IMG/VR virus record: IMGVR_UViG_3300046675_000257
Span: 1-45,895 of that record
DNA: 45,895 nucleotides
Source of the DNA: a virus
Strand: one strand, 5' to 3'
Below the pieces are notes generated by a model. It was not told the DNA's origin, did no database searches, and saw only the letters and a program-made list of their open reading frames with translations. This document shows positions 15,178 through 44,213 of this stretch, in pieces. A program made the translations under genes and the position numbers. The first letter of the stretch is position 1, and each line of letters begins with the position of its first letter.

Positions 15178-15969
15178 ATGTTCTCGCCTGAAGAGCGCGC
15201 CGGGTTTATCGGCGCCAGCGATGTCAACGTGTTCATGGGCAACGCCAGTGAAGAGACGTTGCTGCGCTGGTGGGAGGTCAAGGTCGGGATCCGCGACCCG
15301 GAACCGCAGACCTGGGCGATGCGACTCGGCGCCGCAGTCGGTGATCTGATCCTCGATGAGTTCGAACGCCAGAACAGCGTGGCGATCACGCGCCGTCAGG
15401 AGGTCGTGCCGTCACCTGGCAACAAGCGTTTTCGCGCAACGCTCGACGGCTGGATGGGTGATCGCAACGCCGTAGCCGAGGCTAAATTTTCATCACCGTT
15501 CCTGTCGCGCGAACAGATTTACGCGATGTACTACCCGCAAGTCGCGTTCCAGATGCACTGCACCGACGCCAGCGTTGGCTTTCTGATTGTTTGTCAGGGC
15601 ACCAACGACCCCATCGAGTTCGAGTGTCCACGCGATCCCGATTACGAGCGCGAGGTACTGGCCCGGTGCGGATCCATGCTTGAGCTGATCGACACCCTGA
15701 CGCCACCGGTCGTAATGCCCGCGCCCGTGCCGCCCGAAAAGTGGCGCACGGTCGACCTGGCGTTCGAACAGCCGAACTGGGGGCCCGAGGTGATGGCCGC
15801 TCTGGTCGAGTACGACGAGACCGACGCCGCAGCCAAGGCGCACGAGGCGTGGGGCAAGCTGGTCCGTGAGCGCATTCCCGACGATGTCGGCAAGGTCCAC
15901 ACCGGCTCGTTCACCATCTCCCGCAACAAACGCGGCACCCTGGCGATCACGCGAAAGGCCGCAGCATGA
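15178..15969 (+). CDS. YqaJ-family (lambda Exo-like) recombination exonuclease
   Basis: The 263-residue product has the YqaJ viral recombinase layout: RAGFIGASDVNVFMG at the N-terminus, the GAAVGDLILDEFER helix (Glu61 region), then the PD-(D/E)xK core with Asp90 in RATLDGW and Glu101/Lys103 in VAEAKFSS. The family degrades one strand of double-stranded ends to leave 3' single strands for an annealing protein. That partner, ERF, is coded two genes downstream in the same operon. The ATG follows GGGGAA. It opens the rightward operon. Confidence 0.88.
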   Translation: MFSPEERAGFIGASDVNVFMGNASEETLLRWWEVKVGIRDPEPQTWAMRLGAAVGDLILDEFERQNSVAITRRQEVVPSPGNKRFRATLDGWMGDRNAVAEAKFSSPFLSREQIYAMYYPQVAFQMHCTDASVGFLIVCQGTNDPIEFECPRDPDYEREVLARCGSMLELIDTLTPPVVMPAPVPPEKWRTVDLAFEQPNWGPEVMAALVEYDETDAAAKAHEAWGKLVRERIPDDVGKVHTGSFTISRNKRGTLAITRKAAA

Positions 15970-16232
15970 CGGACAACCGGTTTCCTTTCGGCGTCTCCGA
16001 TGCCGACGTGGCGCGGGCGACCAAGCTGTTCAGGGCCATCGACGACGCACTGGACGAGATCTTTGGTGACGACCCCGACACCATGGTGCTTCCGGTGCTG
16101 ACCACTTGTCTGGCCGAACGGGTCGTGAGCTGCGCTCGCAGCAAAAGGCACGCTCAACGCTACGCCGATATATTCGAGGGCGTGCTTGGCAGGGTCTGGG
16201 ATCGCCTCAACAACCACGAGAGCACATCATGA
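15966..16232 (+). CDS. Small hypothetical protein between exonuclease and ERF genes
   Basis: The 88-residue acidic N-terminal, basic C-terminal product overlaps both neighbours by four bases (ATGA each). It is mostly helical (DVARATKLFRAIDDALDEIF; RHAQRYADIFEGVLGRVW). The tight coupling between exonuclease and annealing protein genes suggests an accessory recombination role. No family is recognised. Confidence 0.7.
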   Translation: MTDNRFPFGVSDADVARATKLFRAIDDALDEIFGDDPDTMVLPVLTTCLAERVVSCARSKRHAQRYADIFEGVLGRVWDRLNNHESTS

Positions 16233-17104
16233 ACAACGACATCACCGTTATGACTCCGCCGACCGGCCTGATGGCGATTATCGACCGCGCCGCCACCGAT
16301 CCCAACTTCGACATCGACAAGCTGCAGCGCCTTCTCGATATGCACGAGGCTGGCGAACAGCGTGCCGAACAGCACGCCTTCACGGCTGCGCTGACCGCAG
16401 CCGAGGCCGAGATGGACACCATCCGAACCGACATGTCGAACCCCCAGACGCGCAGCCGCTACGCCTCGTTTGCCCAGCTCGACCGGGCGGTGCGCCCGAT
16501 TTACACCCGCCATGGTTTTGCGCTGTCGTTTACGACCGAGCCGATGGGAACGCCCGACAGCATCATGGTGGTCTGCACGCTGTCGCATGCGCAGGGCTAC
16601 GCCAAGCGCATCCAGTTGCCGGTGCCGATCACCACGACCGGGTTCAAGGGTCAGCAGATGATGACGCCGGTTCACGCCATGATGGCGGCGGTGTCGTACG
16701 GCAAGCGCAACTGCGAGAGCATGGCGTTCAACCTTCAGGTCGGCGATGCCGACGACGACGGCAATGGTCCGCGTCGCAGCGCACCGCCGCTCAACCAGGC
16801 GCGGCAACAGCAAGAGCGTCCGCCGATGGACATCACCGACGACGCGACCGGCGAGATCACCCGCGTTGCCACCGATACCAACAAGATCAACCCCTGCAAG
16901 ATCACCTGGATTGCGACCGACGACTGGCGGTCGTGGGGTGAGAAGCTGATGTGGGGCGTGCGCAAGTCGGAGTCGGTCGAGGAGATCGACGAGTGGCTGA
17001 AGCTGAACCACGAGCGCCTGACCATCATGGAGAACGACAAGGCCGCGCTCTACAAGACGCTGCTGAGCGCGGTCGCCGCAGTGAAGGAAGGGTTGCTGCA
17101 GTGA
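16229..17104 (+). CDS. erf: ERF-family single-strand annealing protein
   Basis: The 291-residue protein carries the ERF core: an N-terminal helix-rich part (AEQHAFTAALTAAEAEMD), then SRYASFAQLDRAVRPIYTRH followed by GFALSF, LSHAQGYAKRIQLPVP, and the AVSYGKRNCESMAF segment with the Tyr-Gly-Lys-Arg of the family. The C-terminal 110 residues are more variable. ERF proteins form rings that anneal complementary strands. Paired with the upstream YqaJ exonuclease this gives a two-component recombination system able to circularise or repair phage DNA. The start overlaps the previous stop (ATGA). Confidence 0.87.
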   Translation: MNNDITVMTPPTGLMAIIDRAATDPNFDIDKLQRLLDMHEAGEQRAEQHAFTAALTAAEAEMDTIRTDMSNPQTRSRYASFAQLDRAVRPIYTRHGFALSFTTEPMGTPDSIMVVCTLSHAQGYAKRIQLPVPITTTGFKGQQMMTPVHAMMAAVSYGKRNCESMAFNLQVGDADDDGNGPRRSAPPLNQARQQQERPPMDITDDATGEITRVATDTNKINPCKITWIATDDWRSWGEKLMWGVRKSESVEEIDEWLKLNHERLTIMENDKAALYKTLLSAVAAVKEGLLQ

Positions 17105-17529
17105 AGTTCGTGCCTGCCCCGCATAAAGGTCAGCTCTGCCTCGTGGCTCACGACAAGGCGGCGTTCGATTTCATGAAGCAGGTTCGCGACGCCGAGCCGC
17201 TCGAGCTCGAACCGCTGTTCGAGCGCGACATGATCGAACATCGCAAGGTGTTCGCGCAGATCAACGAGGTGGCGAAGGCGCTGCACATCACGCCCGAATG
17301 CCTGCGTGCCCGCCTGCTGTTCGAGACCGGCAATTTCACGGTGCTGGGCGAGATGTACGGCAAGACGTTCGTCGCGGTGTCGTCGATGAGCCGTCACGCC
17401 ATGCGCGACCACGAGCTGCACACGTTCTGGGCCGAAGCCAAGGAGGTGGTGAAGACCAAGCTGTTGTCGAATGTGTCTGATCCGGCTGAGCGCGAAAGCT
17501 TGGCCGCGATGTTGTCGGAGGTTGGGTGA
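17101..17529 (+). CDS. DUF1367-like phage protein
   Basis: The 142-residue product starts at a GTG overlapping the ERF stop (GTGA). The pattern QLCLVAHDKAAFDFMKQV, then PLFERDMIEHRKVFAQINEV, resembles DUF1367 proteins found next to recombination genes in lambdoid and other phages, where a modest N-terminal strand precedes an RN/H-x-x-F-F type helix. The match is partial and DUF1367 has no known biochemical activity. Operon position suggests a recombination or replication accessory. Confidence 0.6.
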   Translation: MKFVPAPHKGQLCLVAHDKAAFDFMKQVRDAEPLELEPLFERDMIEHRKVFAQINEVAKALHITPECLRARLLFETGNFTVLGEMYGKTFVAVSSMSRHAMRDHELHTFWAEAKEVVKTKLLSNVSDPAERESLAAMLSEVG

Positions 17530-17531
17530 AT

Positions 17532-17556
17532 GTCAGGCCCCTGCCCAGAGCCTGAC
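17532..17556 (+). other. RNA hairpin GTCAGGC/GCCTGAC
   Basis: A perfect 7-bp stem (17532-17538 with 17550-17556) begins three bases after the stop at 17529. Its loop side contains GGCCCCTGCCCAGAGC (17536-17551), nearly identical to 28646-28661 in another non-coding gap. No U-tract follows. Confidence 0.45.
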
Positions 17557-17571
17557 CTTCGGCGATCCAAA

Positions 17572-17604
17572 CCCTGCCGGTCACCCGCACGGTGGTCGGC
17601 AGGG
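17572..17604 (+). other. Strong RNA hairpin in the recombination operon
   Basis: CCCTGCCG (17572-17579) pairs with CGGCAGGG (17597-17604). Inside it CACC (17582-17585) pairs with GGTG (17591-17594), separated by a symmetrical GT/GT internal loop. Twelve pairs in total make this the most stable small hairpin in the module. It lies between two genes transcribed the same way and lacks a U-tract, so processing, stability or Rho-related roles are as likely as intrinsic termination. Confidence 0.5.
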
Positions 17605-17653
17605 GGCGGATAATCTTCCCGTAGGCCGTTTTGTCAATCGAAAGGGGACTGCA

Positions 17654-18010
17654 ATGCAACAGGACAATCTCTCGACCGCCGAGCAACAGGCAATCCGCGA
17701 CATCCGCGACATTCAGGACAAGCGCCTGGCGGTCGTCGAGACACCGCCGCTCGAGGAGCAAAGCCACCTTGCGATGCACGCGATGGTCGACAAGCTGGTC
17801 GACCAGTGGGTCGCCGAGTTCGCGCGCACCCGTGAACAGACGGTCGTGCTCGAGCAAATGGTGATCAGTCAGGCGGCCAAAGTGAAGAACGAGATCACCC
17901 GCATGCACCTGTTGGGGATCCAGACGATGCGCGAGGCCGAGCACGCCCACGAAGTCAACCAGCACATCGCCGACGAACTCGACAGCATGATGGAGAACGA
18001 ACATGGCTGA
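17654..18010 (+). CDS. Helical hypothetical protein
   Basis: The 118-residue product follows an AAAGGGG site. It is almost wholly helical and charged (TAEQQAIRDIRDIQDKRLAV; MVDKLVDQWVAEFARTREQ; EQMVISQAAKVKNEITRM), with coiled-coil potential in the second half. A hairpin-rich leader of about 120 bases separates it from the recombination genes, so it may be separately expressed. It overlaps the next gene by eight bases. No family is recognised. Confidence 0.68.
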   Translation: MQQDNLSTAEQQAIRDIRDIQDKRLAVVETPPLEEQSHLAMHAMVDKLVDQWVAEFARTREQTVVLEQMVISQAAKVKNEITRMHLLGIQTMREAEHAHEVNQHIADELDSMMENEHG

Positions 18011-18275
18011 CAACAAGGTGCCACGCGGCGAAGAGATCGAGATCGTGGTCCCGCCGGAAATCCAGGCGCAGCTCGACGCCGATCCGAAGAAGGCTGAGTT
18101 CGTTCGCGAGATGAGTGCCAAGATCCGTCAGGCGCTCGACGGTGTCGCGACCGGCAAGTTCGCCGATGCCGACGAGGCGATGCGTTCTATCGGCGCCGAG
18201 AAGGTCAACAAAAGCGAGCACCCGTTTGGTTTCGATGTCGACGCCCTCGATGATGATGAGGACAACGATGGCTGA
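18003..18275 (+). CDS. Small acidic hypothetical protein
   Basis: The 90-residue product has a helical middle (DPKKAEFVREMSAKIRQALD) and a very acidic C-terminus (VDALDDDEDNDG). It overlaps both neighbours by eight bases, so it belongs to one translationally coupled series (17654-18868). Function unknown. Confidence 0.68.
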   Translation: MADNKVPRGEEIEIVVPPEIQAQLDADPKKAEFVREMSAKIRQALDGVATGKFADADEAMRSIGAEKVNKSEHPFGFDVDALDDDEDNDG

Positions 18276-18597
18276 CGACGAAGAGTTCAACCCCGCCGAT
18301 CCGTTCAAGCAGCTCGAGCCGCATCTTAGCGACGTGAAGATCGCACCGGCTCATGGCATCGCCGCAATCGCACTGTCGCTGGCGATGAAGTACCACGACA
18401 TTGCGACCATCAAGGACGGCGCGATGTACCAGCAATATAAGCTGGAGGGTCGCAACATCCGCGAAATCAACCTCGACACCGTGTTCGAGACCGCGATCAG
18501 GATCGAGATGCACTTACTGGCCTCGTCCGAGCGCATCGCCAAAATCGTGGTCGACGTGATCGCCGAGCTGCCCGAGGAGGAGTTTCCTCATGATTGA
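18268..18597 (+). CDS. Hypothetical protein in the small-gene operon
   Basis: The 109-residue product starts at an ATG eight bases inside the preceding gene. A hydrophobic helix (HGIAAIALSLAMKYHDIATI) is followed by an acidic amphipathic helical region (FETAIRIEMHLLASSERIAK). It ends in an acidic EELPEEEFPHD-type tail. No motif identifies a function. Confidence 0.66.
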   Translation: MADDEEFNPADPFKQLEPHLSDVKIAPAHGIAAIALSLAMKYHDIATIKDGAMYQQYKLEGRNIREINLDTVFETAIRIEMHLLASSERIAKIVVDVIAELPEEEFPHD

Positions 18598-18868
18598 GCG
18601 GATCGAGGCGACATTCGAGTTCAAGTCGGTCGAGGACGTGCCGCTGCGATTGCGCGCGGTCGCGACCGCGATCTTGTTCCTGATCAAGGGGCTCGACTAC
18701 GACGACGAGCTGTCGGTGCTGACCTCGCTGATGTTCGACACCTTGCGTCGCCTGCACGCAGCGAGCGACGGCATGGCCGACCCCGACGAGATCATCGAGG
18801 AGGTCACAGCGGGGCTGCACGCGATGTGGGCGCGCTACCAGCTCGCCCACGGGGTCACCAAGCAATAA
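18590..18868 (+). CDS. Hypothetical helical protein
   Basis: The 92-residue product is compact and helical (VPLRLRAVATAILFLIKGLD; ELSVLTSLMFDTLRRLHAA), rich in Asp/Glu. It overlaps the previous gene by eight bases and ends 36 bases before the excisionase-like gene. No family is recognised. Confidence 0.65.
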   Translation: MIERIEATFEFKSVEDVPLRLRAVATAILFLIKGLDYDDELSVLTSLMFDTLRRLHAASDGMADPDEIIEEVTAGLHAMWARYQLAHGVTKQ

Positions 18869-18904
18869 CAAAACCGGGGCGTGCGGGCCCATTGGGGAAA
18901 CAAG

Positions 18905-19099
18905 ATGCCGAAGCGCAAACACCGCCCGCAACCGCCGCCCGATCTCGAGTATCTCACCATCGAACAGACCGCTGGCCTGACCGGACTCGGCGCCTGGACG
19001 ATCCGCCAGATGGTCAAGACCGGCAAGTTGCACTCGACCCGCGTCGGGGTCCGCATCGTGATCCGGCGCACCGATGTCCAGAAGGCGTTCCAGCCATGA
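18905..19099 (+). CDS. Excisionase-like / MerR-type HTH protein
   Basis: The 64-residue product reads YLTIEQTAGLTGLGAWTIRQ then MVKTGKLHSTRVGVRIVIRR, the winged-helix pattern of small excisionase (Xis/HTH_17) proteins that bend DNA at att sites. The start ATG follows GGGGAAAC. Its location one gene away from the presumed attP and the integrase supports a recombination directionality role. It could equally be a transcription regulator. Confidence 0.72.
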   Translation: MPKRKHRPQPPPDLEYLTIEQTAGLTGLGAWTIRQMVKTGKLHSTRVGVRIVIRRTDVQKAFQP

Positions 19100-19362
19100 C
19101 GTTCAAGATCAAGTGGGTCGACGCTGGCCGCGAGCCGACGCAGACGCCGAACCCGGACTATCCCGAGGGCATCGACATCGACCTGACCAAGGATGGCGAG
19201 CCGAGCTGTCACACCGAGCTGCCGTACCCGGCCAAGCGGTGCGGCTACTACTACGTCGAGTGTCGGGTGTGCGGGCGCAACGCCGCGATCACGACGGCTG
19301 GCCGACCGGACGATCCCCGGTCGGTGAGGTTGCCTTGCAAGGTCATTACGACCGGGGCATGA
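19096..19362 (+). CDS. Small protein with possible zinc ribbon
   Basis: The 88-residue product overlaps the HTH gene by four bases (ATGA). It carries CGYYYVECRVCGRNAAITTA, and a further Cys near the C-terminus (LPCKVITTG), a spacing compatible with a zinc ribbon. Many phages encode similar small proteins of unknown role. It is the last gene before the attP candidate region. Confidence 0.66.
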   Translation: MTFKIKWVDAGREPTQTPNPDYPEGIDIDLTKDGEPSCHTELPYPAKRCGYYYVECRVCGRNAAITTAGRPDDPRSVRLPCKVITTGA

Positions 19363-19397
19363 TCCATGCGCTGGACGCGGCGAAGAAAAGCTTAATA

Positions 19398-19416
19398 TCC
19401 ACCGGAATGTCCACGG
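19398..19416 (+). repeat. 19-bp direct repeat, left copy (possible integrase arm site)
   Basis: TCCACCGGAATGTCCACGG. It matches the copy at 19617-19635 in 15 of 19 positions, with both TCCAC half-elements intact. The TCCAC element also resembles part of a DnaA box, so an alternative reading is replication-protein binding. Confidence 0.5.
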
Positions 19417-19523
19417 CCAAAAACCGCTCATGAATAGTGCAATGATTTCAGCACGTTCTCGCTATAGCGGGCTCTGCAAGGAAAAGCCGTTTCCCTGATT
19501 TGCGGGCGTCAATCGCGAAGAAA

Positions 19524-19534
19524 ATCTTAAAGAT
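19524..19534. promoter_or_regulatory. Palindrome ATCTTAAAGAT (candidate operator)
   Basis: A perfect 11-bp palindrome in the integrase upstream region. It shares the AAGAT/ATCTT half-site with 28671-28683 and with the right arm of the 14834-14874 repeat. Confidence 0.42.
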
Positions 19535-19616
19535 ATGCCTGCGGCGCAGGGCTTTCCTCAACTCCACACCAAACCACCGCACACCACCTCACAGCACTAA
19601 AAACCCCCTCGATTTG

Positions 19617-19635
19617 TCCACCGATCTATCCACGG
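19617..19635 (+). repeat. 19-bp direct repeat, right copy (possible integrase arm site)
   Basis: TCCACCGATCTATCCACGG. It lies about 60 bases before the integrase start and pairs with 19398-19416 (15 of 19 identical, same orientation). Confidence 0.5.
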
Positions 19636-19642
19636 GCTATAA

Positions 19643-19674
19643 CGGTGTTTGCCGCTGCAACAGCGGCATAACCG
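19643..19674 (+). promoter_or_regulatory. Hairpin in the integrase leader
   Basis: GCCGCTG (19651-19657) and CAGCGGC (19661-19667) form a tight stem with a CAA loop, extended outside by CGGT/ACCG (19643-19646/19671-19674). It ends 18 bases before the integrase GTG, so it may affect integrase translation or stop incoming transcripts. Confidence 0.45.
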
Positions 19675-19692
19675 AAAGCAGAGGGGACTACC

Positions 19693-21009
19693 GTGAGCAA
19701 AGATCTCGGCAAGAAAGACGACGACAAGACCAACGCCAGGCTGGCGACGCTGGCCGCTGGCACCGATCACTCGGACGGCGACAACCTGTACCTGTCGGTG
19801 CGCCCGAGCGGGTCGCGTTCGTGGGTGCTGAAGTTCACATGGCGCGAGCCCGGCGAGGCCAAGGGCTCGCCGAAGAAGGTCGGCGGCGGATCCTATCCGG
19901 CGGTCGGTCTCACCGCTGCGCGCAAGTGGGCCGCCGAACAGATGGAAGGGTTGGCTCGCAACCCGTCGGTGATGCCGAAGGCACTCGGCTATGTCGACCC
20001 TGCGCTCAAGCTGGCCAACATGACGCTGGGCGAATACGCCCGCACCTACCTCGACGAGATCCGCCTGCCCGGCATCAAGAGCAAGAAATGCCGCGACCAG
20101 TGGGAAGCGACCTACACGCTGATCGCCAAGCTGCACGGCAAGCGTCTGCGCGATGTCGTGGTCGACGACATCCGCAAGGCGCTCGCTGGCAAGTGGCTGG
20201 CCTCGCCCGTGATGGCTGGCGTGCACCGCATGCAGTTGCACGCGATCTTCAAGACCGCCGCCTCGCAGGGCTACTGCGACCGCGACAAGAACCCGGCCAA
20301 CGAGGACACTTTCGTCGAGCTGATGCCCGCGCAGACGCACTCGCCGAAGGGCCGCAAGGCGCTGCCCTATGCCGAGATGCATGACTTCTGGGCCGAGCTG
20401 GTCGGGCGCGTGAACACCGCGCGCGGCGCCAACGTGATTGGCTGGGCGGCGCAGGCCATGGTGCTGACCGCGACCCGCTGCGGCGAGGTGCGCCAGATGC
20501 AGTGGACGCAGATCGACCGCAAGCGCCGCCGCTGGGTGATCCCGGACAAGGTCATGGGCAAGAACGGCCACGAGGCCGACATCCCGCTGTCGGTGGCGAT
20601 GCTGGCGCTGCTTGACCGCGTCGAGAAGTGGCAGAACGAGAACCGCATCCAGTCGCCTTACGTGTTCCCCGGCAGCGGCGCCGACGGCATGATTGGCGAC
20701 GGCGCATTGCTGGTGCTGATCAAGATCCGTCTCGGCTACGATGCCACCGCGCACGGGTTCCGCTCGACCTTCAAGACGTGGTGTCAGCAGGAGACCTTGC
20801 ACCAGGACGAGGCCACCGAGATGTGCCTGCACCACATCAAGGACGATGCGACCCGCGAGGCCTATGCGCGCGGCGACATGTGGGACAAGCGCCGCGATGC
20901 GCTCGAGCATTGGGCGCTCTACGTGCAGGGTTTGCCGATGCCGTCGCAGTTCATGAAACCGACCATGTCGCAGGTTGGCTGGGACCAGTGGAACGTCGTG
21001 GCGGGTTAA
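19693..21009 (+). CDS. int: Tyrosine-family integrase (P4-type, DUF4102-like N-terminus)
   Basis: The 438-residue product starts at a GTG preceded by GAGGGG. Residues 1-90 hold the arm-binding domain (DNLYLSVRPSGSRSWVLKF, then GSYPAVGLTAARKWA). Residues about 112-200 are the SAM-like core-binding domain. The catalytic domain has Arg262 (TATRCGEVRQ), a conserved KNGHEADIPL lysine strand, His354-x-x-Arg357 (HGFRSTFKTW), His381 (CLHHIKDDATREAY) and nucleophile Tyr391. The tail AYARGDMWDKRR, then LEHWALY, is the P4 integrase pattern. It recombines phage attP with a host attB, often in a tRNA gene. A strong terminator follows. Confidence 0.93.
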   Translation: MSKDLGKKDDDKTNARLATLAAGTDHSDGDNLYLSVRPSGSRSWVLKFTWREPGEAKGSPKKVGGGSYPAVGLTAARKWAAEQMEGLARNPSVMPKALGYVDPALKLANMTLGEYARTYLDEIRLPGIKSKKCRDQWEATYTLIAKLHGKRLRDVVVDDIRKALAGKWLASPVMAGVHRMQLHAIFKTAASQGYCDRDKNPANEDTFVELMPAQTHSPKGRKALPYAEMHDFWAELVGRVNTARGANVIGWAAQAMVLTATRCGEVRQMQWTQIDRKRRRWVIPDKVMGKNGHEADIPLSVAMLALLDRVEKWQNENRIQSPYVFPGSGADGMIGDGALLVLIKIRLGYDATAHGFRSTFKTWCQQETLHQDEATEMCLHHIKDDATREAYARGDMWDKRRDALEHWALYVQGLPMPSQFMKPTMSQVGWDQWNVVAG

Positions 21010-33132: not shown

Positions 33133-34229
33133 TGCTCGACTTCCCCAACGCACCGACGGTTGGTCAGAAGTATCCTCCGACACCGGTTGGCGGTGTGCCG
33201 ACCTATGTGTGGGACGGCGAGAAGTGGACGACTATTGGCGGCGCTCCAGCGGTTGGCCTGCCGCCCTCCGACGTTGTGCCGCTGATGGACGGCGTAGGCG
33301 CGTCAGGCGTCTCGACCAACTATTCGCGCGGTGATCATCGCCATCCGACCGACACGTCGCGCGCTCCGATCAATGCGCCGGTCTTCACGGGCGGCGTCAC
33401 CACCAACACGCTTTCCGTCACCGGCACCGCATCGTTTGGCGGTGCGATCACTGCCGTCTCGATCACGACTACCGGCAACGCCGCAATCGGCGGTGTGGTC
33501 AGCGCACCGCAAGTGAACATTGGCGGCAGCGCCAGTGCTGCGCCGCTGGCTGTCCGGCCTGCCGCCAACGAAAACCTGGTCGTCTTCAACAACTCAGGCA
33601 TGCTGACGGTCTCGGCGCTGAACGATGCTGGCGCTGCGACGCCGATGACCTTGTCGGCCTCGACGCTCGCGATCCTTGGTGCAGCCTCGTTCAACCTGTC
33701 GCCGATTGCACCGACGCCGACGCTTGGCGACAACTCGACCAAGGTCGCGACCACGGCGTTTGTGCTCGCCAACATGCCTGCCCCCGGCGGCTTCCTGCCG
33801 CTGAGCGGCGGCACGCTGACCGGTGCACTCGTTGTCAACGCCGACATGGCCTCGTCGGTCGGCAGCATCACGACGCGCGGCTGGAGCGGTAATCAGGCGA
33901 CTGGCCTGATCTTCTTCGGCAACACGGGTGCGCGCTACTGCTACTACGACGGCAGCAACTTCACCTTCAATGGTGGAGTCATCAGCGCCGCCAACGGTCG
34001 ACTGTGGGGTGCCGCCGATGCACTGCCGGTCCCCGGCGGTGCGTTCAGCAACGCGCGGATGGCGTTCGCGGGTGATGTGGGTGCCACTGCGGGTTACATG
34101 CAGGAGCCCTACGGCGGTGCCGCCATCACCGGCATTCAGGCCGACAACACCGGGTCTTACATCCTCTACTACCGCTGGCGCTACATGCAATTCTACACCA
34201 CCAGCTGGTGGACGGTGGGGTACGCATGA
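33132..34229 (+). CDS. Second tail fibre protein
   Basis: The 365-residue protein opens with DFPNAPTVGQKYPPTPVGGV, then PTYVWDGEKWTTIGG, an N-terminal fibre module. Residues about 85-235 contain repeated Val/Ala/Thr-rich strands (NTLSVTGTASFGGAITAV, STKVATTAFVLANM, LPLSGGTLTGALVV) seen in fibre shafts. A beta-rich tip ends it. The previous gene's stop and its ATG share a base, and its stop overlaps the next ATG. It may be an alternative or accessory receptor-binding fibre. Confidence 0.76.
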   Translation: MLDFPNAPTVGQKYPPTPVGGVPTYVWDGEKWTTIGGAPAVGLPPSDVVPLMDGVGASGVSTNYSRGDHRHPTDTSRAPINAPVFTGGVTTNTLSVTGTASFGGAITAVSITTTGNAAIGGVVSAPQVNIGGSASAAPLAVRPAANENLVVFNNSGMLTVSALNDAGAATPMTLSASTLAILGAASFNLSPIAPTPTLGDNSTKVATTAFVLANMPAPGGFLPLSGGTLTGALVVNADMASSVGSITTRGWSGNQATGLIFFGNTGARYCYYDGSNFTFNGGVISAANGRLWGAADALPVPGGAFSNARMAFAGDVGATAGYMQEPYGGAAITGIQADNTGSYILYYRWRYMQFYTTSWWTVGYA

Positions 34230-34672
34230 ACGTCATCGAGCACGGCAGCTGGGTCCGCTATCAACCCAGCACAATTCCAGACGATGCGCCGCCCAATGCG
34301 CTGTTCTGCCGACGCGAGAGCGACGGCATGGACTGGTACGCCTACGTGCATCCCGGCACCAACTTCGGCGCTGACACGGTGAAGTTTGCCGCGATCATGC
34401 GCGACGGCGTCGGCTATGTCGTCGGGCCCGCGACCACCGACGCGACCGCGATGTTTCCCGCCGATCACCTCGTTGGAGAGATCACCGATTATGTGGGCAC
34501 CGATCCGCAGGGCGACCTTGGCAACAAGGTGTTCGATCCAGCGACTGGCGCGTTCACTGATCAGCCACCTCCGCCAGCTCGTCAGGTGGAGACCGCCGCC
34601 GAAAAGCTGATCCTCCAGACGCTTGGCCAGCTCGCGAAGCGGCTCGACGCCCTCGAGAAAAGGAAGGGCTGA
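34226..34672 (+). CDS. Tail fibre-linked hypothetical protein
   Basis: The 148-residue protein has a strand-rich N-terminal part (IEHGSWVRYQPSTIPDDAPP, then MDWYAYVHPGTNFGADTVKF) and a helical C-terminal tail (AAEKLILQTLGQLAKRLDAL). Genes in this position often encode fibre assembly factors, but no chaperone motif is seen. It is coupled to both neighbours by 1-4 base overlaps. Confidence 0.62.
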   Translation: MNVIEHGSWVRYQPSTIPDDAPPNALFCRRESDGMDWYAYVHPGTNFGADTVKFAAIMRDGVGYVVGPATTDATAMFPADHLVGEITDYVGTDPQGDLGNKVFDPATGAFTDQPPPPARQVETAAEKLILQTLGQLAKRLDALEKRKG

Positions 34673-36804
34673 TGGCTGATGATCTCGGCACGCTTGCAGC
34701 TGACGCGGTCGTCGATCCGCCAGTGCAGACGGCTGATGGCTGGTGGGTGTGGAAGGACACGCCAGATGGTCCGACGCGGATGTCAGCGCATCCGCCGCCT
34801 GGCACCGTGGCTGCAGCGCCAGCTGCAGCGCCGACGGTAGCAGCGCCACCGACTGCGCCTGCAACACCTGTGATGCCGAGCCTCGCCGAAGATCTGTCGC
34901 GCTCGAGCGTGTTGCCGCCGGGTGCTGGCAGCACCGTGCCCGCGCAGTTCTCTGAGCCGCTGCGCAAGGCGTATCCGCAGCCCGAGGCCTCGACCTACTA
35001 TCCGACCGTCAGCGAAAAACTCGGCGATGCCGTGCGTTCAGGCATGACCTCCGCAGGCTTCACGCCGCAGGCCGCGCAGCATTTCGGCGAGCGCACCACC
35101 GACGCCGCTGGCTACGTGCCTGGTCTCGGCACCGCCGTTGCCGCTGGCGACACCACACGCGATCTCGCACTCGGCGACTATCCAGGCGCTGCGATCTCCG
35201 CTGCCGGTCTGATCATCCCCGGCGCCAGCAAGGCCAAGGGTGCGATCAAGAAAGGTGCGAAGGCTGTCGAGCAAGCGGTGGCGTCGACCGGCGAGCACCT
35301 CGCCGACGCGATCCCCGGCATTGGCCACAACGCACCGCCGACCGGGAAACTGAACCCGCTCGCAAACGAGGCGGTGACGTTCAGAGGCAAGCAACCCGGC
35401 GAGATGACGCCGGAAGAGTATCAGGCCTTCGGCCAGCACTACGGTGTGCCGGACCTTGGTCCGCTGTCGCCAGTGCAGACGCTGACCGATGCGAGCGGTC
35501 GACAGTTTCAGGTGCCGGGCGGCACCGAGGGCAAGTGGACCTACTACGATCTGCTGCACATGAAGGCGAACCCGATCAATCCGGCGCAGATGGATCGCGA
35601 GCTGCACCAGCAAATGCAGCTCAAGCTTGGCCGTACGCACACGCCCGAGAACCTCACCGATGCCGACGTGTGGAACGGTCTCGTCTTCGGCATGACATCG
35701 CCGAACAATCCGCTGTTCCCCAACCAGATGGCGGCGAGTCGGCTGCGGTTGCGCGATCCGCAGATGCTCGACGACCTCGCCTCGATGATCCCGTGGAAGC
35801 CTGGCGAAACACCGACGCCGCAGGCACGCAAGCTCGTCAACGACAACATCGCTGCACGCTTTGGTCTGCAAGCGGCGCCGAAGGGTGGTCTCGGTGTGCG
35901 CGGCACCGCCGATTATTCGCGCGTCGGCGAAATGGCGCAGCTGTTCAAGCAGGATCCGAGTTTTTTCCGCAAGCAACCGAACGAGGACTGGGGCCAGGCG
36001 GTCGAGCGCATCTCCTCGCAGCTGCCCGGCCTGTCGATGAAGACCGGATCCTTCGGCACCGTGTGGCAGGATCCCGCCAACGCCGCGATCTCGGCCATCG
36101 ACCGCCACATGGCACGCGAACTCGAGTTACGCGGTGGCCTGTTCGAAACGCCAGAGGCGCGCACCGCCTGGGAAAATCGCGGCGTCAATCTGTGGAATAA
36201 CCGGATCGACAAGGAGACAGTCGACAACGCCAAGAAGGGTCTGCCGCCGTCGGCCAGAGAGAAGGCCACGAGCTGGAGCGATCTGCTGTCGAAGCAGGGG
36301 TCCGATGGTTTCGTCGGCGAGATGCTGCTTAGCCATGTCGGTGCGGCGGGCGAGCCAAAATTCCGGCTGAAGAGCGGTGAGATCAATCCAGACCTTCCCA
36401 CCCATCTTGCGCAGGCAACGTGGGTGCGGGAGCCCGACAGCGTCTTCAAGATGGGTCAGGCCTACAAGCGTGCGCTCCAGCTCAATCAACAGATTGCCGA
36501 TGAGAACGGGCTCAACCTGTTCATGTCGCAGTGGATGGAATGGGACCGCATCCGCAACCGGTTCGAGCCGCACGAAAACATGTTTCCGGGTCTCAAGAAC
36601 ATGCCCGCGATGTCGACCGACCAGCTGCAGGGGGTCGATGCCGCGCACCGGGCGACCGGCCACAAGACCTACACCAAGGACGACGAAGCGAAGCTGCCAC
36701 CGACGCGGACGTTCAAGGGCCTGCCATCCAAGATGGGCTACCTGGGGCTAGGCGGCGCGATGGTGCCAATGATTTCGGGAAAACAGGATGACACCGCGAA
36801 CTAA
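34672..36804 (+). CDS. Large putative ejected protein with HhH-GPD DNA glycosylase-like signature
   Basis: The 710-residue protein shares one base with the previous stop. Residues 45-75 are Ala/Pro-rich; about 85-205 are helical with Gly-rich hydrophobic stretches, like internal virion proteins. From about 285 to 560 the sequence changes character. VWNGLVFGMTSPNNPLFPNQ precedes LPGLSMKTGSFGTVWQDP, and AISAIDRHMAREL follows. That order matches HhH-GPD glycosylases (LPGVGRKTA, then VDTHV-R), with a Lys at 457 and an Asp at 477, at the positions of catalytic Lys120 and Asp138 of endonuclease III (spacing 20 versus 18). The glycosylase reading is inference. A structural-only protein remains possible. 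Confidence 0.6.
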   Translation: MADDLGTLAADAVVDPPVQTADGWWVWKDTPDGPTRMSAHPPPGTVAAAPAAAPTVAAPPTAPATPVMPSLAEDLSRSSVLPPGAGSTVPAQFSEPLRKAYPQPEASTYYPTVSEKLGDAVRSGMTSAGFTPQAAQHFGERTTDAAGYVPGLGTAVAAGDTTRDLALGDYPGAAISAAGLIIPGASKAKGAIKKGAKAVEQAVASTGEHLADAIPGIGHNAPPTGKLNPLANEAVTFRGKQPGEMTPEEYQAFGQHYGVPDLGPLSPVQTLTDASGRQFQVPGGTEGKWTYYDLLHMKANPINPAQMDRELHQQMQLKLGRTHTPENLTDADVWNGLVFGMTSPNNPLFPNQMAASRLRLRDPQMLDDLASMIPWKPGETPTPQARKLVNDNIAARFGLQAAPKGGLGVRGTADYSRVGEMAQLFKQDPSFFRKQPNEDWGQAVERISSQLPGLSMKTGSFGTVWQDPANAAISAIDRHMARELELRGGLFETPEARTAWENRGVNLWNNRIDKETVDNAKKGLPPSAREKATSWSDLLSKQGSDGFVGEMLLSHVGAAGEPKFRLKSGEINPDLPTHLAQATWVREPDSVFKMGQAYKRALQLNQQIADENGLNLFMSQWMEWDRIRNRFEPHENMFPGLKNMPAMSTDQLQGVDAAHRATGHKTYTKDDEAKLPPTRTFKGLPSKMGYLGLGGAMVPMISGKQDDTAN

Positions 36805-36904: not shown

Positions 36905-37171
36905 ATGGCAAGTCGCCTTCAACGCCCGCCGCCGTTCCAGCCGGTCAAGGGGCCGACAGTAAAGCCGCCGCCGGTCTCGAACACACACGACAATTTTTCG
37001 CACAACACATCGCCGACGCAGGGCCCGCAGATGGGTCCACCCGAGCTGACGCCAGCAACGTCGGCGCCGCGCGCGACGATCAAGACACTCCCCGACGTGC
37101 CGATGCACGTCACCAAGCATCCCAACCCCGTTGGTCGCCCGAAGGGCAGCAGCAATGGTGATGGTTACTGA
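36905..37171 (+). CDS. Proline-rich protein with AT-hook-like C-terminus
   Basis: The 88-residue product has a good AGGAG site. It is Pro/Thr-rich and disordered-looking, ending HPNPVGRPKGSSNGDGY. GRPKGS is an AT-hook-like or small-terminase-like N-terminal motif, so a DNA-binding helper for packaging is possible, but the domain that usually follows it is absent. Its end overlaps the terminase start by 17 bases. A longer frame starting at 36871 lacks a ribosome binding site and was not chosen. Confidence 0.6.
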   Translation: MASRLQRPPPFQPVKGPTVKPPPVSNTHDNFSHNTSPTQGPQMGPPELTPATSAPRATIKTLPDVPMHVTKHPNPVGRPKGSSNGDGY

Positions 37172-38732
37172 GGCGGATCGATACCTGCTTCTGCTTCGGC
37201 GCAAGCGGGCGATCATCGCTGCGCGCAATGATCTCATTGCGTTTACGCAGCTGATGATGCCTGACCCGAACGCGGACGAAGATCCGACGTTCTCGCTCTA
37301 CAAGCCGCAGCGTTTCCACAAGGTCATTGGTGCTGCGCTCGAGGAGGTCGAGCGCGGCGACTATCGGCGGCTGATGATCAACGTCGGTCCCCGCATGGGC
37401 AAGACGACGCTGGCGTCGGCGATGTTTCCCGCCTGGTACATGGGTCGCCATCCCGACCGCTCGATCATCGTCGCCACCTACAACGAACACTACTCGTGGG
37501 ATCTCGGTCGCCACATCCGCGACATTATGGTGACGCCGCAGTATCGCCAGGTCTTCCCCGAACTCGACATCAAGGTCGGCGCCTGCACCGTCAATCGCAT
37601 CCAGACCACGCGCGACGGCATCGTGTTCTCGGTCGGTCGCGGTTCGTCCATCACCGGTCGCGGTGGTCACTGCATCCTGCTTGACGATCCGATCAAGGAC
37701 CGCAACGAGGCCGACTCGCCAAACATCCGCGAGAAGCTTTGGCAGTGGTGGCTGCAAGTGCTGCGCACCCGCCTGATGGATGCCACCGGCACCATCGTGC
37801 TGATCCAGACGCGGTGGACCGAGGACGACCTCGTCGGTCGCCTGATCGATCCCCGCTCGCCCTACTACAACGTCGACGAAGCCAAGCTGTGGCGGAAGAT
37901 CGATCTGCCTGCGCTCGCCGAAGAGGACGACATTCTCGGTCGGCAGAAGGACGAGCCGTTGTGGCCCGACCGTTTCGGCAAGGCGTATCTCGAGGAGATC
38001 CGCAACACCGACCCCCGTGGCTTCGCTGCGCTCTATCAGGGCCGCCCGGCACCGCGCGAAGGCGCGTTCTTCAAGGCCGCCGACCTCGTGCCGTACAACC
38101 GCATGGACGAGATGCCAGCGTTCCACAAGATGCGGTTCTACGGCGCGAGCGATCACGCGGTGTCGACCGAACAACGCGCCGACAAGACCTGTCTGATGGT
38201 CGTCGGTGTCGACGAACAGGACCACATCTGGATCATGCCCGACGTGATCTGGCAGCGGCTCGATAGTCAGCAAGCCATCGAGTCGATGATCGTGCTGATC
38301 AAGAAGTACAAGCCGACGTTCTGGTGGGCCGAGCGCGGCGCCATCGAGAAATCGCTGGGCCCGTTCCTGCGCAAGCGCATGGTCGAGCGGCAGGCCTACT
38401 GCGCTATCGATCCGATCACGCCAGCCGTCGACAAGGAGCAACGTGCGCAGGCGATCCAGGCGCGCACCGGGATGCACATGGTGCACTTCCCGACCTTCAC
38501 GCGGTGGTGGGCCGACGCACAGGATCAGGTGCTGAAGTTTCCGCACGGCCCGAAAGACGACTTCGTCGATGCGCTGGCGCTGATTGGCCTTGGCCTTGCC
38601 AAGATGCACGGTCGTGTTCGCATCGTGAAACCGCAGCCCGATGTGGTGAGCGGTACGTTCCGAGATTTGTGGGCAAAGACGAAACGACGAGAGGGGTCTG
38701 AGCGACGGGCGAGGAGCCTGCGAGGATGGTAG
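37155..38732 (+). CDS. terL: Terminase large subunit
   Basis: The 525-residue protein has the ATPase motor motifs: Walker A GPRMGKTT with Lys83, Walker B ILLDD at 174-178, and a coupling-type QTRWTEDDLVGRLID segment. The C-terminal nuclease holds the Asp triad: Asp333 (ASDHAV), and Asp468/Asp469 with Asp472 (KDDFVDAL). It cuts and pumps DNA into proheads with a small terminase partner I could not identify. Start at ATG 37155; 37161 is possible. It is coded directly before the portal gene, overlapping it by seven bases. Confidence 0.93.
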   Translation: MVMVTEADRYLLLLRRKRAIIAARNDLIAFTQLMMPDPNADEDPTFSLYKPQRFHKVIGAALEEVERGDYRRLMINVGPRMGKTTLASAMFPAWYMGRHPDRSIIVATYNEHYSWDLGRHIRDIMVTPQYRQVFPELDIKVGACTVNRIQTTRDGIVFSVGRGSSITGRGGHCILLDDPIKDRNEADSPNIREKLWQWWLQVLRTRLMDATGTIVLIQTRWTEDDLVGRLIDPRSPYYNVDEAKLWRKIDLPALAEEDDILGRQKDEPLWPDRFGKAYLEEIRNTDPRGFAALYQGRPAPREGAFFKAADLVPYNRMDEMPAFHKMRFYGASDHAVSTEQRADKTCLMVVGVDEQDHIWIMPDVIWQRLDSQQAIESMIVLIKKYKPTFWWAERGAIEKSLGPFLRKRMVERQAYCAIDPITPAVDKEQRAQAIQARTGMHMVHFPTFTRWWADAQDQVLKFPHGPKDDFVDALALIGLGLAKMHGRVRIVKPQPDVVSGTFRDLWAKTKRREGSERRARSLRGW

Positions 38733-41374
38733 ACACCACATTCGGCGATGCCATGGACGGCATGCTGGGCGGCGATAGTCCCGACGCCAGCGGCGGGCCC
38801 GACATCAATGCATCGACCGGCGAGCAAAACTCGATCCCGCGCGACCAGCCGGACCCACCGGAGCGGCGCAAGCGCCTGATTTCGGCGTGGACCTCGCGCG
38901 TCAAGCAGGCCAAGACGTTCTGGAAGCCTGCGTTCGACCGCATGCGCGAAGATCAGGAATTTTGCTTCGGCAAGCAGTGGTCGAAGGAGAAGGACGAGAG
39001 TCGCTACGTCGCCAACCTGACGCTGCGCCTGGTCGCACAGAAGACGGCGTTCCTGTACGCAAAAAATCCCAAGGCGGTCGCCAAGAAGCGGCAGCGCATG
39101 AACGCGACGAGCTGGGACGAGAGCCAGAGCACGCTGACCCAGCTGATGCAGTCCGGCGCGATGATGATGGGCCAGATGCAGGGCGCGGTGCAGCAAGGCC
39201 AGATGCCGCCGCCGCAGATGAGCCAGATGCTCGACATGGCGCAGGGCGTGATGAGCCACGCGATGCCGATGGCCACCGGTCAACCGCCGCAGCCCGGCCC
39301 GCCGTCGCCGATGCTGAATGGCGGGACGCCACCCGGCATGCCGTCGATGACGCCGCCGTCGCTGCAGCCGTCACCGTCACTCAATGCGATCTCAGGATCC
39401 GTCGGCGCCGCGATGGGCGGTGCGACGATGCCCGGCATGGGCGCGGGCCCGATCCCCGGCAGCATGCAGGGTGCACCCGGTCTCGGCGACCAGATGAGCA
39501 TGGCCGCTGGCGGTCAGGCTGCGGCCAACATTCCCGGCGTGTCGCCGATGATGGCGCAGGCCGTCGGCAGCGGCATGGACATCATGATGGACGCCGCCAA
39601 GGTGAAGAACGAAAACATCATGATGGACAAGCTCGCGCGCACGCTCGAGCTGCTTTACGCCTACGAGGTCGACAACCAGCCACACCCGTTCAAGTCGATG
39701 CTCAAGATGACCGTGCGTCGCGCCGTCACCAACGGCGTGGCCTACATCAAGCTGGGCTACGAGCGGGTGATGGAAGAGCGGCCCGACCTGGAGAAGGGGG
39801 TCGCCGATGCGTCGGAGAAGCTCGCAACGCTGGAGCGGCTCGCTGCCGATGCGAAGGACGACATCACCGACGACAACGACAAAGAGGCCGAACAGCTGCG
39901 CCTGTTGCTGGCCGATCTGGCGAAGCAGACCGGCGTCGTGGCTCGCGAAGGCCTGACGTTCGATTACCCGCTGTCGACGCGCATCATCCCCGACGTTAAG
40001 TGCATCGAGCTGAAAAACTGGGTCGCTGCCGACTGGGTCGCCGAGGAGTTCGTGCTGTCGACCGACGAGATCGAGGAGGTCTACGGCGTCGATGTGCGCG
40101 GCCATTGCAACGAGTACACGATGGACGATTACGGCGGGCCGGATCCGATTGCGATGGCGCGCGAGTGGCAGTCGGGAGCCTGGAGCACGCAGCGCGGTCG
40201 CGAGTGGGACGACCGGGCGCAGAAGAATGCGGTGGTGTGGGAGATCTACAGCCGCAAGGACGGTTTGGTCTACGTGGTGTGCGACGGCTACAACGACTTC
40301 CTGCGCGAACCGGCGGGGCCCGACATTTTCAACGAGCGGTTTTACCCGTGGTACGCACTGCTGTTCAACGGCATTGAAGACGAACGCGAGCTGTTTCCGC
40401 CGAGCGACGTGCGGCTGATGCGCGACATGCAGCTCGAATACAATCGCTGCCGTGAAGGTCTCAAGGAACAGCGTATCGCGGCGCGTCCGTTTATCGGTGT
40501 GGTGTCGGGGAGCCTCGACGAGGAGGATCTCACCAAGCTGACCAACCGCGCCGCCAACGATGTCGTCGAGCTGAACGCCCTGCAGCCCAATCAGGACATC
40601 AAGCAGCTGCTGCAGGCGTACGCCGGTCCCGGCGTCGACCCGAACCTGTACGAGGTCAACCCGGTCTACGAAGACATCCTGCGCACCACCGGCATCCAAG
40701 AGGCCAATCTCGGCGGCACCTCGAACACCACCGCAACGCAGGCCCAGATCGCCGAGGGTTCGCGCATGACCTCGATGGGGTCGAACATCGACGACCTTAA
40801 CGATCTGTTGTCGCAGCTCGCCCGCAATGGCGGACAGATCCTGTTGCGCGAGATGAGCCAGGACCGCGTCAAGCAGGTTATCGGTCAGGGAGCGGTGTGG
40901 CCCGCGAGTCCGAGCGCGCAGGACATCGCCAACGACATCCTGCTTGAGATCGAGGCGGGCTCGATGGGCCGCCCGAACCAGGCGCAGGAGATCGCGAACG
41001 CGCAGCGCCTCTACCCGCTGCTGATCCAGCTGCCCGGCATCGACCCGGAGTTCTTGGCGAAGGACGTTCTTCGCCGCCTCGATGACCGTCTCGACCTCAC
41101 CGAAGCGTTCAAGTCGCAGCTGCCCTCGATTGTCGCCATGAACGGCATGGCGCAAGGCACGGGCGCTGCGGGTGAGGGCGGGCCTGCCGGGCCGACGATG
41201 CCCGGCGCAGGAGCCGGGCCGGGTGCGATGATGGGCGCACTGGGCAAGTCGAACGCACCGAACCCTGGTGGACCGGCGCCGGGCGGTGCGCCGGACGCCC
41301 AGACGACGCTGTCGGGAGCACCGCCAGCTCGTCCTCATCCGATGCCGGGGCAAATGCCGTCGATGCCGCAATAG
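38726..41374 (+). CDS. Portal protein with Met/Pro/Gly-rich insertion
   Basis: The 882-residue protein is a phage portal: RKRLISAWTSRVKQAKTFWK, the EFCFGKQWS region, then the long helical stem/wing segments (EIEEVYGVDV, PGPDIFNERFYPWYALLFNG, MQLEYNRCREGLKEQRIAAR), and the usual helical C-terminal part. Between KNPKAVAKKRQRMN (about 113-126) and NIMMDKLARTLELLYAYE (about 297-314) sits a roughly 150-residue segment with about 26 Met plus many Gln/Pro/Gly (residues 141-290). A similar Pro/Gly/Met tail ends the protein. This makes it longer than many podovirus portals. It forms the dodecameric DNA gate. Confidence 0.9.
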   Translation: MVDTTFGDAMDGMLGGDSPDASGGPDINASTGEQNSIPRDQPDPPERRKRLISAWTSRVKQAKTFWKPAFDRMREDQEFCFGKQWSKEKDESRYVANLTLRLVAQKTAFLYAKNPKAVAKKRQRMNATSWDESQSTLTQLMQSGAMMMGQMQGAVQQGQMPPPQMSQMLDMAQGVMSHAMPMATGQPPQPGPPSPMLNGGTPPGMPSMTPPSLQPSPSLNAISGSVGAAMGGATMPGMGAGPIPGSMQGAPGLGDQMSMAAGGQAAANIPGVSPMMAQAVGSGMDIMMDAAKVKNENIMMDKLARTLELLYAYEVDNQPHPFKSMLKMTVRRAVTNGVAYIKLGYERVMEERPDLEKGVADASEKLATLERLAADAKDDITDDNDKEAEQLRLLLADLAKQTGVVAREGLTFDYPLSTRIIPDVKCIELKNWVAADWVAEEFVLSTDEIEEVYGVDVRGHCNEYTMDDYGGPDPIAMAREWQSGAWSTQRGREWDDRAQKNAVVWEIYSRKDGLVYVVCDGYNDFLREPAGPDIFNERFYPWYALLFNGIEDERELFPPSDVRLMRDMQLEYNRCREGLKEQRIAARPFIGVVSGSLDEEDLTKLTNRAANDVVELNALQPNQDIKQLLQAYAGPGVDPNLYEVNPVYEDILRTTGIQEANLGGTSNTTATQAQIAEGSRMTSMGSNIDDLNDLLSQLARNGGQILLREMSQDRVKQVIGQGAVWPASPSAQDIANDILLEIEAGSMGRPNQAQEIANAQRLYPLLIQLPGIDPEFLAKDVLRRLDDRLDLTEAFKSQLPSIVAMNGMAQGTGAAGEGGPAGPTMPGAGAGPGAMMGALGKSNAPNPGGPAPGGAPDAQTTLSGAPPARPHPMPGQMPSMPQ

Positions 41375-43091: not shown

Positions 43092-44213
43092 ATGCCGACC
43101 TATACGGCACCGTTGCTGAACCACATCACCACCGCTGCGCTCGATTGGTGGATGAACAAGGGCACAGCATTCCAAGAGGCCATTCAGGAAAAGCCGCTGC
43201 TTGCTCAGATGGAGAGCAAGAAGAAGACGTTTCCCGGTGGCAAGGGCAACATCATCATCTCGGTGAAGGGCGACTTCGGAAACACCGCCGCACCGGGCAC
43301 CGCCGATCAGGTCGTGGGCTACCAGCTCGACGACGTGGTCACGTACTACACGCCTGCGAACCTCACTCAGGCGGTTCTGCCCTGGAAGGAGCATCACATT
43401 GGTCTGATGCTCACGCACTCGGAGCTGAAGAGCGACGGCATCACCGTCGTTGACTCCGGTGCTGACGACAGCCGCACCACCGAACACTCCGGTCGCGACG
43501 ATACCGTGCTTGTCGGTATCCTCGAGGACGCGCTGCAGGATTTGTCCGAGCAATACGCTCGCGGCATGAACAACCTGCTGTGGGGCGACGGTGTTGCGGA
43601 TCCGAAGGCGCTTGCTGGTATGCGTGCGCTCGTCACCGACGATCCGACGGCTGGCACCGTTGCTGGTATCGACCGTGCGGCGAAGACCTGGTGGCGCAAC
43701 CGCGCTTACACCACGGCGATGGGAGCCAAGGTTACCGGCACCCCGGCGCTCGCGGCGTGGGGCGGCGGCCCGATCACGTCGGCAACGACCAACGGTGGTG
43801 CGCTGATCACGCTGTTGCAGAACGAGTATCGGCAGCTGACCCGCTACGGCGGCAAGCCCAACACTGCGTTCTGCGGCTCGAGCTGGTTGTCGGCACTGGA
43901 GACCGAACTCCGCGCCAACGGCAATTACTCGATGCAGGGCTTCGCTGGCGGCAAGGACGTGAGCGTTGGTCAGATCTCCTACATGGGGACTGACTTCGAA
44001 TACGACCCGTCGCTCGACGCTCTCGGCAAGGCCAAGCGTTGTTACTGGTACGACAACCGCGACATCTACCTCGTCGCAATGCAGGACGAGTGGCGTCACC
44101 AGCACTCCCCCGACCGGACCCCGGACAAGTACGTCCTCTATCGGTCGCTTACCTCGACCGGGCAGTTGTGTGCGCGGCGGCTGAACTCAGCTGTCGTGAT
44201 CGACATCGCCTGA
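43092..44213 (+). CDS. Major capsid protein (HK97 fold)
   Basis: The 373-residue protein follows the scaffold-like gene. It reads NHITTAALDWWMNKGTAFQE, then KKTFPGGKGNIIISVKGDFG, with later spine-helix and A-domain type segments (GRDDTVLVGILEDALQDLSE; TTNGGALITLLQNEYRQLTR; KPNTAFCGSSWLSALETELR) and strand endings as in HK97-fold capsid proteins of the phage N4/P22-like short-tailed group. A terminator directly follows, consistent with very high expression. I cannot assign a closer family. Confidence 0.88.
   Translation: MPTYTAPLLNHITTAALDWWMNKGTAFQEAIQEKPLLAQMESKKKTFPGGKGNIIISVKGDFGNTAAPGTADQVVGYQLDDVVTYYTPANLTQAVLPWKEHHIGLMLTHSELKSDGITVVDSGADDSRTTEHSGRDDTVLVGILEDALQDLSEQYARGMNNLLWGDGVADPKALAGMRALVTDDPTAGTVAGIDRAAKTWWRNRAYTTAMGAKVTGTPALAAWGGGPITSATTNGGALITLLQNEYRQLTRYGGKPNTAFCGSSWLSALETELRANGNYSMQGFAGGKDVSVGQISYMGTDFEYDPSLDALGKAKRCYWYDNRDIYLVAMQDEWRHQHSPDRTPDKYVLYRSLTSTGQLCARRLNSAVVIDIA

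What the first reader, a model, noticed from the sequence alone, without database searches (positions are those of the whole stretch)
34672..36804. Possible DNA glycosylase domain in a large protein of the tail cassette
The 710-residue protein contains LPGLSMKTG followed by AISAIDRHMAREL. In HhH-GPD enzymes the order is LPG-x-x-x-KT, then V-D-T-H-x-x-R-V, with a catalytic Lys and Asp. Lys457 and Asp477 are both present here, 20 residues apart (18 in endonuclease III). The N-terminal part looks like an ejected internal virion protein, and the gene ends the tail fibre cassette. A base-excision or AP-lyase-like domain delivered with phage DNA would be unusual: it might repair or alter incoming DNA or attack host modified DNA.
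Basis: partly seen in the sequence, partly recalled or inferred. Interest (0 to 1): 0.78.

Follow-up and report, generated by a model that had tools for sequence, protein, structure and literature searches.

The report
Phage virion-cassette protein with glycosylase-like domain
A soil- and water-virus protein family, encoded among the genes for the virus particle, carries what looks like a DNA-base-removing repair enzyme of the 8-oxoguanine glycosylase type; if it is packaged and injected as its gene position suggests, the virus would bring its own base-excision tool into the cell with its DNA.

Summary
The ORF (34672-36804, +, 710 aa) and its LPG-x3-KT ... D-R-H motif are real. No Pfam, PHROG, NCBIfam or PDB sequence match exists, and no isolated phage has a relative, but an alignment of 30 sequences down to about 30% identity was built from IMG/VR. 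In all 30, K457, T458, D477, R478 and H479 are invariant. An AlphaFold2 model from these 30 (pLDDT 90, pTM 0.88) puts the motif in a helix-hairpin-helix with D477 starting the next helix. Across the PDB the best Foldseek matches by probability are all OGG2-type 8-oxoguanine glycosylases (0.69/0.47/0.14; E-values not significant). Profile-profile alignment to OGG2 pairs K with K and D with D, score 37.6 against at most 21.3 in 150 column shuffles. The gene lies among virion genes in every context that could be read. One relative carries LPD23 and an N-terminal region shared with a Pseudomonas phage protein annotated as found in the virion by mass spectrometry. It lacks the C-terminal lysine that defines OGG2. 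Activity, substrate and packaging are untested.

The parts
34672..36804 (+). 710-aa protein: variable N-terminal region plus conserved C-terminal domain with an HhH-GPD-like core
   Evidence: ORF and translation; 24 then 37 related loci in IMG/VR
34672..35340 (+). Variable Pro/Ala-rich N-terminal region, residues 1-223, with a hydrophobic stretch, ending in a short GHNxPP motif (35323-35340); replaced by unrelated and often longer regions in relatives
   Evidence: comparison of relatives; motif scan
35341..36741 (+). Conserved domain, residues 224-690, containing the glycosylase-like fold
   Evidence: alignments A1-A3; AlphaFold2 pLDDT 90, pTM 0.88
35989..36129 (+). HhH-GPD-like motif: helix 440-450, hairpin LPGLSM, helix 456-466 with K457 (36040-36042), loop, D477 (36100-36102), helix 478-486
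   Evidence: model secondary structure; invariant residues; HHalign K-to-K and D-to-D with OGG2
36517..36576 (+). C-terminal helix and following residues with invariant Q620-x3-W624, D625, R628, R630 and H634; in register with the base-contacting D194/W198 pair of MjaOGG2
   Evidence: conservation 28 of 28; sub-optimal HHalign alignment, not significant alone; OGG pocket residues from PMC3397491

Best explanation
The gene encodes a virion-associated protein of a temperate podovirus-like phage. A variable N-terminal part serves in packaging or ejection, and the conserved C-terminal part is a divergent HhH-GPD DNA glycosylase/AP-lyase closest to OGG2. Proposed action: the protein is built into the particle and enters the cell with the DNA. 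The HhH hairpin grips the duplex backbone; a damaged or modified base, most likely a purine, is flipped into a pocket lined by Q620/W624; K457 attacks C1' with D477 as acid/electrostatic partner; the base leaves and the strand may be nicked by beta-elimination. Likeliest role: immediate repair of oxidised or abasic lesions in the incoming genome. Shown: ORF, motif, invariance, predicted HhH fold, location among virion genes. Inferred: packaging, catalysis, substrate, role.
For: K457/T458 and D477/R478/H479 are invariant in 30 sequences down to about 30% identity. AlphaFold2 pLDDT 90, pTM 0.88, with a helix-hairpin-helix at the motif. Best PDB matches by probability are all OGG2 enzymes (3knt 0.69, 3n0u 0.47, 3fhg 0.14; other listed hits at most 0.06). 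Viral 3-methyladenine glycosylases appear weakly in BFVD. Two relatives hit Pfam Ogg-HhH at E about 0.1 (L041 at E 0.14 over the motif region). HHalign score 37.6 to OGG2 against a shuffle maximum of 21.3. The gene lies beside terminase, portal, tail/internal virion or ejection genes in divergent phages. LPD23 in relative L018; its N-terminal region is homologous to part of Pseudomonas phage H66 protein H66_0060, noted as virion by mass spectrometry.
Against: No curated family reaches its cut-off. Foldseek E-values are 0.5 or worse and target TM-scores 0.39-0.46. A first model from 19 sequences (pLDDT 79) left the motif disordered and found no glycosylase. The second hairpin glycine is Ser in most members. 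No OGG2-type C-terminal lysine. No significant match to Nth-type sequences. No proteomics or assay.
Confidence: 0.52

Rival explanations
1. The HhH-GPD domain is active but works in the producing cell at packaging time: it clears lesions or nicks DNA before or during translocation, and is not injected.
For: Gene next to terminase (window, L001, L010, L034) or portal (L004, L018, L020, L038, L041); related phages keep nuclease genes beside terminase.
Against: In other lineages it sits with tail, internal virion or DNA-ejection proteins instead (L023, L025). Fusion with LPD23 and HEIQH regions of virion polyvalent proteins fits delivery better.
Confidence: 0.18
2. The fold is HhH-GPD-derived but repurposed: a DNA-binding virion protein, or an enzyme that builds rather than removes modified bases (like the glycosylase-fold enzymes of phage thymidine hypermodification, recalled from memory and not tested).
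For: Large insertions relative to OGG2, altered hairpin glycine, a conserved extra C-terminal part (R..EPHENMFPGL), no OGG2 C-terminal lysine.
Against: Both catalytic residues invariant; Q/W pair invariant. No base-hypermodification genes found among the window genes scanned.
Confidence: 0.15
3. Unrelated all-helical virion structural protein whose conserved KT...DRH segment resembles HhH-GPD by convergence.
For: No significant sequence or fold E-value against any glycosylase in library searches.
Against: Three methods point to the same family, OGG2, and the two sequence methods do so over the motif, in register.
Confidence: 0.15

Closest known systems
OGG2-type 8-oxoguanine DNA glycosylase/lyase (Pfam PF22175 Ogg-HhH; PDB 3knt, 3n0u, 3fhg)
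   Same: HhH with Lys nucleophile and Asp in register, D/Q-x3-W pocket pair in register, best PDB fold match
   Different: Much larger, insertions between the Asp helix and the C-terminal helix, conserved N-terminal extension with a beta hairpin, no C-terminal Lys, fused to a virion-type N-terminus, below the Pfam cut-off
Polyvalent proteins of phages (Iyer et al. 2017, PMC5512222)
   Same: Late/virion gene neighbourhood; LPD23 and a zincin-like HEXXH motif in relatives
   Different: The word 'glycosylase' does not occur in that paper's main text, whose abstract counts 131 domains; the window protein itself has only one recognisable domain
Brig1 anti-phage DNA glycosylase (PMC11078745)
   Same: DNA glycosylase in phage-host conflict
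   Different: Host-encoded, uracil-DNA-glycosylase superfamily, monofunctional; acts on phage glucosyl-hmC
T4 endonuclease V (pyrimidine-dimer glycosylase)
   Same: Phage-encoded backbone-cleaving glycosylase (PMC7824862)
   Different: Different fold, and by general knowledge synthesised early in the cell rather than encoded in a virion cassette

Membership tests
HhH-GPD superfamily | Helix-hairpin-helix followed by a loop with catalytic Asp | tested here: met
   Predicted helices 217-227 and 233-243, D254 before helix 255-263 of the domain, block pLDDT 88-96; predicted, not solved
HhH-GPD superfamily | Catalytic Asp, and Lys in bifunctional members, conserved | tested here: met
   30 of 30 for both
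HhH-GPD superfamily | Profile match above curated cut-off | tested here: not met
   No match to PF00730; PF22175 at best E 0.097 in relatives
HhH-GPD superfamily | Significant fold similarity | tested here: inconclusive
   OGG2 ranks first, probability 0.69, but E 0.5 and TM 0.41
OGG2 | Strictly conserved C-terminal lysine that senses 8-oxoG (PMC3397491) | tested here: not met
   Chain continues well past the pocket helix; C-termini end ...DDTAN...EEGAR and so on
OGG2 | Base-stacking Trp four residues after an Asp | tested here: inconclusive
   Q620-x3-W624 invariant in 28 of 28 and in register, but Gln replaces Asp and the alignment of this segment is not significant alone
OGG2 | 8-oxoG excision | not testable with these tools
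   needs biochemistry
Phage polyvalent protein | Located among late virion genes | tested here: met
Phage polyvalent protein | Several disparate domains in one polypeptide | tested here: inconclusive
   Met in L018 (LPD23 E 5.9e-9, HEIQH motif); L021 LPD23 just below cut-off; window protein has no second recognised domain
Phage polyvalent protein | Present in virion and injected | not testable with these tools
   Only indirect: homology of the L018 N-terminal region to H66_0060, annotated as virion by mass spectrometry

The most novel reading that the evidence does not exclude
An ejected base-excision enzyme: a podovirus family packages an OGG-like glycosylase/AP-lyase as one module of swappable polyvalent virion proteins, so base excision begins on the incoming phage genome, or on modified or host DNA, before any phage gene is expressed.
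Probability: 0.42. Interest if true: 0.8.

Novelty: new variant of a known kind. Interest (0 to 1): 0.62.

Why it matters
Phage polyvalent proteins thought to be injected are known to carry proteases, transferases, nucleases and polymerases; I found no description of a DNA glycosylase among them in the papers held here. If true, extracellular phages of soil and water could enter with their own base-repair tool, or with a weapon against modified DNA. Both can be tested with one purified domain and a panel of oligonucleotides. It also suggests a fold for a family with no annotation in Pfam, PHROGs or NCBIfam.

Tried and rejected
Direct family scans of the window protein (Pfam, PHROGs, NCBIfam) and PDB sequence search gave nothing usable. 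Isolated phage records gave no relative. A profile search of about 400 bacterial genomes found only a degraded copy in a Roseomonas MAG and short low-score stretches, and did not pull out cellular glycosylases. In a first shuffle control one shuffle scored 135.9, which I take to be an artefact of shuffled gap columns; the control was repeated on gap-filtered columns with 150 shuffles, maximum 21.3. Alignment to Nth-type HhH-GPD sequences was not above shuffles. The C-terminal pocket alignment was tested alone and is not significant (8.9 against shuffles up to 18.1). Pfam MinC_N hits (best E 0.00064, three relatives) cover only about 16 residues where their extent was seen, and were rejected as spurious.

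Full report
Observation. The ORF 34672-36804 (+) encodes 710 residues. It has the codon usage of the phage's late genes. The window is a whole IMG/VR record of 45,895 bases, which may still be a fragment of a genome. The gene overlaps by one base the end of a tail-fibre-assembly gene (34208-34672, phrog_136) and precedes the large terminase (37131-38732, phrog_38 E 4e-102), the portal (38726-41374) and the major head protein (43092-44213). The window also encodes an integrase, ERF and YqaJ recombination proteins and a DnaB-like helicase, so the phage is probably temperate; a short-tailed morphology is inferred from the gene set.

Family. The protein has no match in Pfam, PHROGs or NCBIfam, no usable match in PDB sequences, and none in 50,697 phage records. 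Scans of IMG/VR returned 12, 24 and 37 loci, the last reaching 29-30% identity. The conserved part is residues 224-690; residues 1-223 are replaced by unrelated and often much longer regions in relatives. In a 30-sequence alignment of this part (A3), K457, T458, D477, R478, H479, T342, S343 and G453 are identical in all 30. Q620, W624, D625, R628, R630 and H634 are identical in all 28 that reach that far.

Fold. An AlphaFold2 model from 19 sequences gave pLDDT 78.6 with the motif disordered and no glycosylase match. With 30 more diverse sequences it gave pLDDT 90.2, pTM 0.88, and a clear helix (217-227), hairpin, helix (233-243), loop, helix (255-263) in domain numbering, with K457 on the second helix and D477 just before the third. 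Foldseek against the PDB then ranked M. jannaschii OGG2 (3knt) first, with T. maritima (3n0u) and S. solfataricus (3fhg) OGG2 also listed. Probabilities were 0.69, 0.47/0.38 and 0.14, against at most 0.06 for the other listed hits. E-values (0.5-2.9) and TM-scores (0.39-0.46 on the target) are not significant in themselves. In the viral library the only strong match is an uncharacterised member of the same family; medusavirus and pandoravirus 3-methyladenine glycosylases appear weakly.

Sequence link to OGG2. Pfam Ogg-HhH appears in two relatives at E about 0.1. Nine OGG2-like sequences, recovered with PF22175 from genomes of the phylum of the Roseomonas MAG, were aligned to A3 by HHalign. The best alignment pairs K457 with the catalytic Lys and D477 with the catalytic Asp, score 37.6, P 4e-4. 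Among 150 column shuffles the maximum was 21.3. The link to Nth-type sequences is not above shuffles. A second, collinear segment pairs Q620/W624 with the Asp/Trp pair that contacts 8-oxoG in OGG2 (D194/W198 of MjaOGG2; PMC3397491), but it is not significant alone. [quoted passage not shown] it is an OGG-like HhH-GPD domain of a new family. Since that lysine is the 8-oxoG sensor, the substrate may differ from 8-oxoG.

Delivery. In the window, L001, L010 and L034 the gene neighbours terminase; in L004, L018, L020, L038 and L041 it is next to or follows the portal; in L025 it lies between tail and internal virion genes; in L023 it lies downstream of a DNA-ejection-protein gene. In the Pfam scan of eight relatives L018 carries LPD23, a polyvalent-protein-associated domain, above the Pfam cut-off, and L021 carries it just below. 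L018 and L019 also show an HEIQH motif in that region. The N-terminal region of L018 is homologous to part of Pseudomonas phage proteins including H66_0060, whose record says it was verified by mass spectrometry as part of the virion. Iyer et al. (PMC5512222) describe phage polyvalent proteins as typically lying near late virion genes and propose that they are injected; the word glycosylase does not occur in the main text of that paper.

Interpretation. The best account is an ejected virion protein whose C-terminal domain is a divergent, probably active HhH-GPD glycosylase/AP-lyase. Immediate base excision on the incoming genome is the simplest role; attack on modified or host DNA, or lesion clearing during packaging, are alternatives. 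Steps shown: ORF, motif, invariance, predicted fold, gene context. Steps inferred: packaging, catalysis, substrate, biological role.

Noticed in passing
window 35323-35340; L002 10091-11359, L004 11612-12931, L012 6803-8080, L017 10390-11817: A short motif G(H/D)NxPP ends the variable N-terminal part of this protein and also occurs in a scaffold-like protein of several relatives (in L017 encoded directly upstream of the major head protein); it could be a shared capsid-docking signal.
   Followed up: partly
L018 4189-7449 and relatives L019-L022, L024: Some relatives have a long extra N-terminal region; in L018 it holds LPD23 and an HEIQH zincin-like motif and is homologous to part of giant virion proteins of Pseudomonas phages such as H66_0060.
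   Followed up: partly
L031 3526-6000: A relative carries an 825-residue N-terminal region without any match in phage records or a significant one in Pfam.
   Followed up: partly
L029 7386-8333 (Roseomonas mucosa MAG): A C-terminal remnant of this protein in a bacterial contig, probably a prophage relic; it may point to Acetobacteraceae-like hosts.
   Followed up: no
window 8040-10772: 910-residue late protein with an internal phage lysozyme domain, probably a structural (entry) lysozyme.
   Followed up: partly
window 15178-21009: YqaJ recombinase, ERF single-strand annealing protein and tyrosine integrase: the phage appears temperate with its own recombination module.
   Followed up: partly
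window 37131-38732: Terminase is closest to Microcystis phage Mae-Yong1326-1 (50%) and Rhizobium phage RHph_N65 (43%), which show other genes in the glycosylase-like gene's position.
   Followed up: partly
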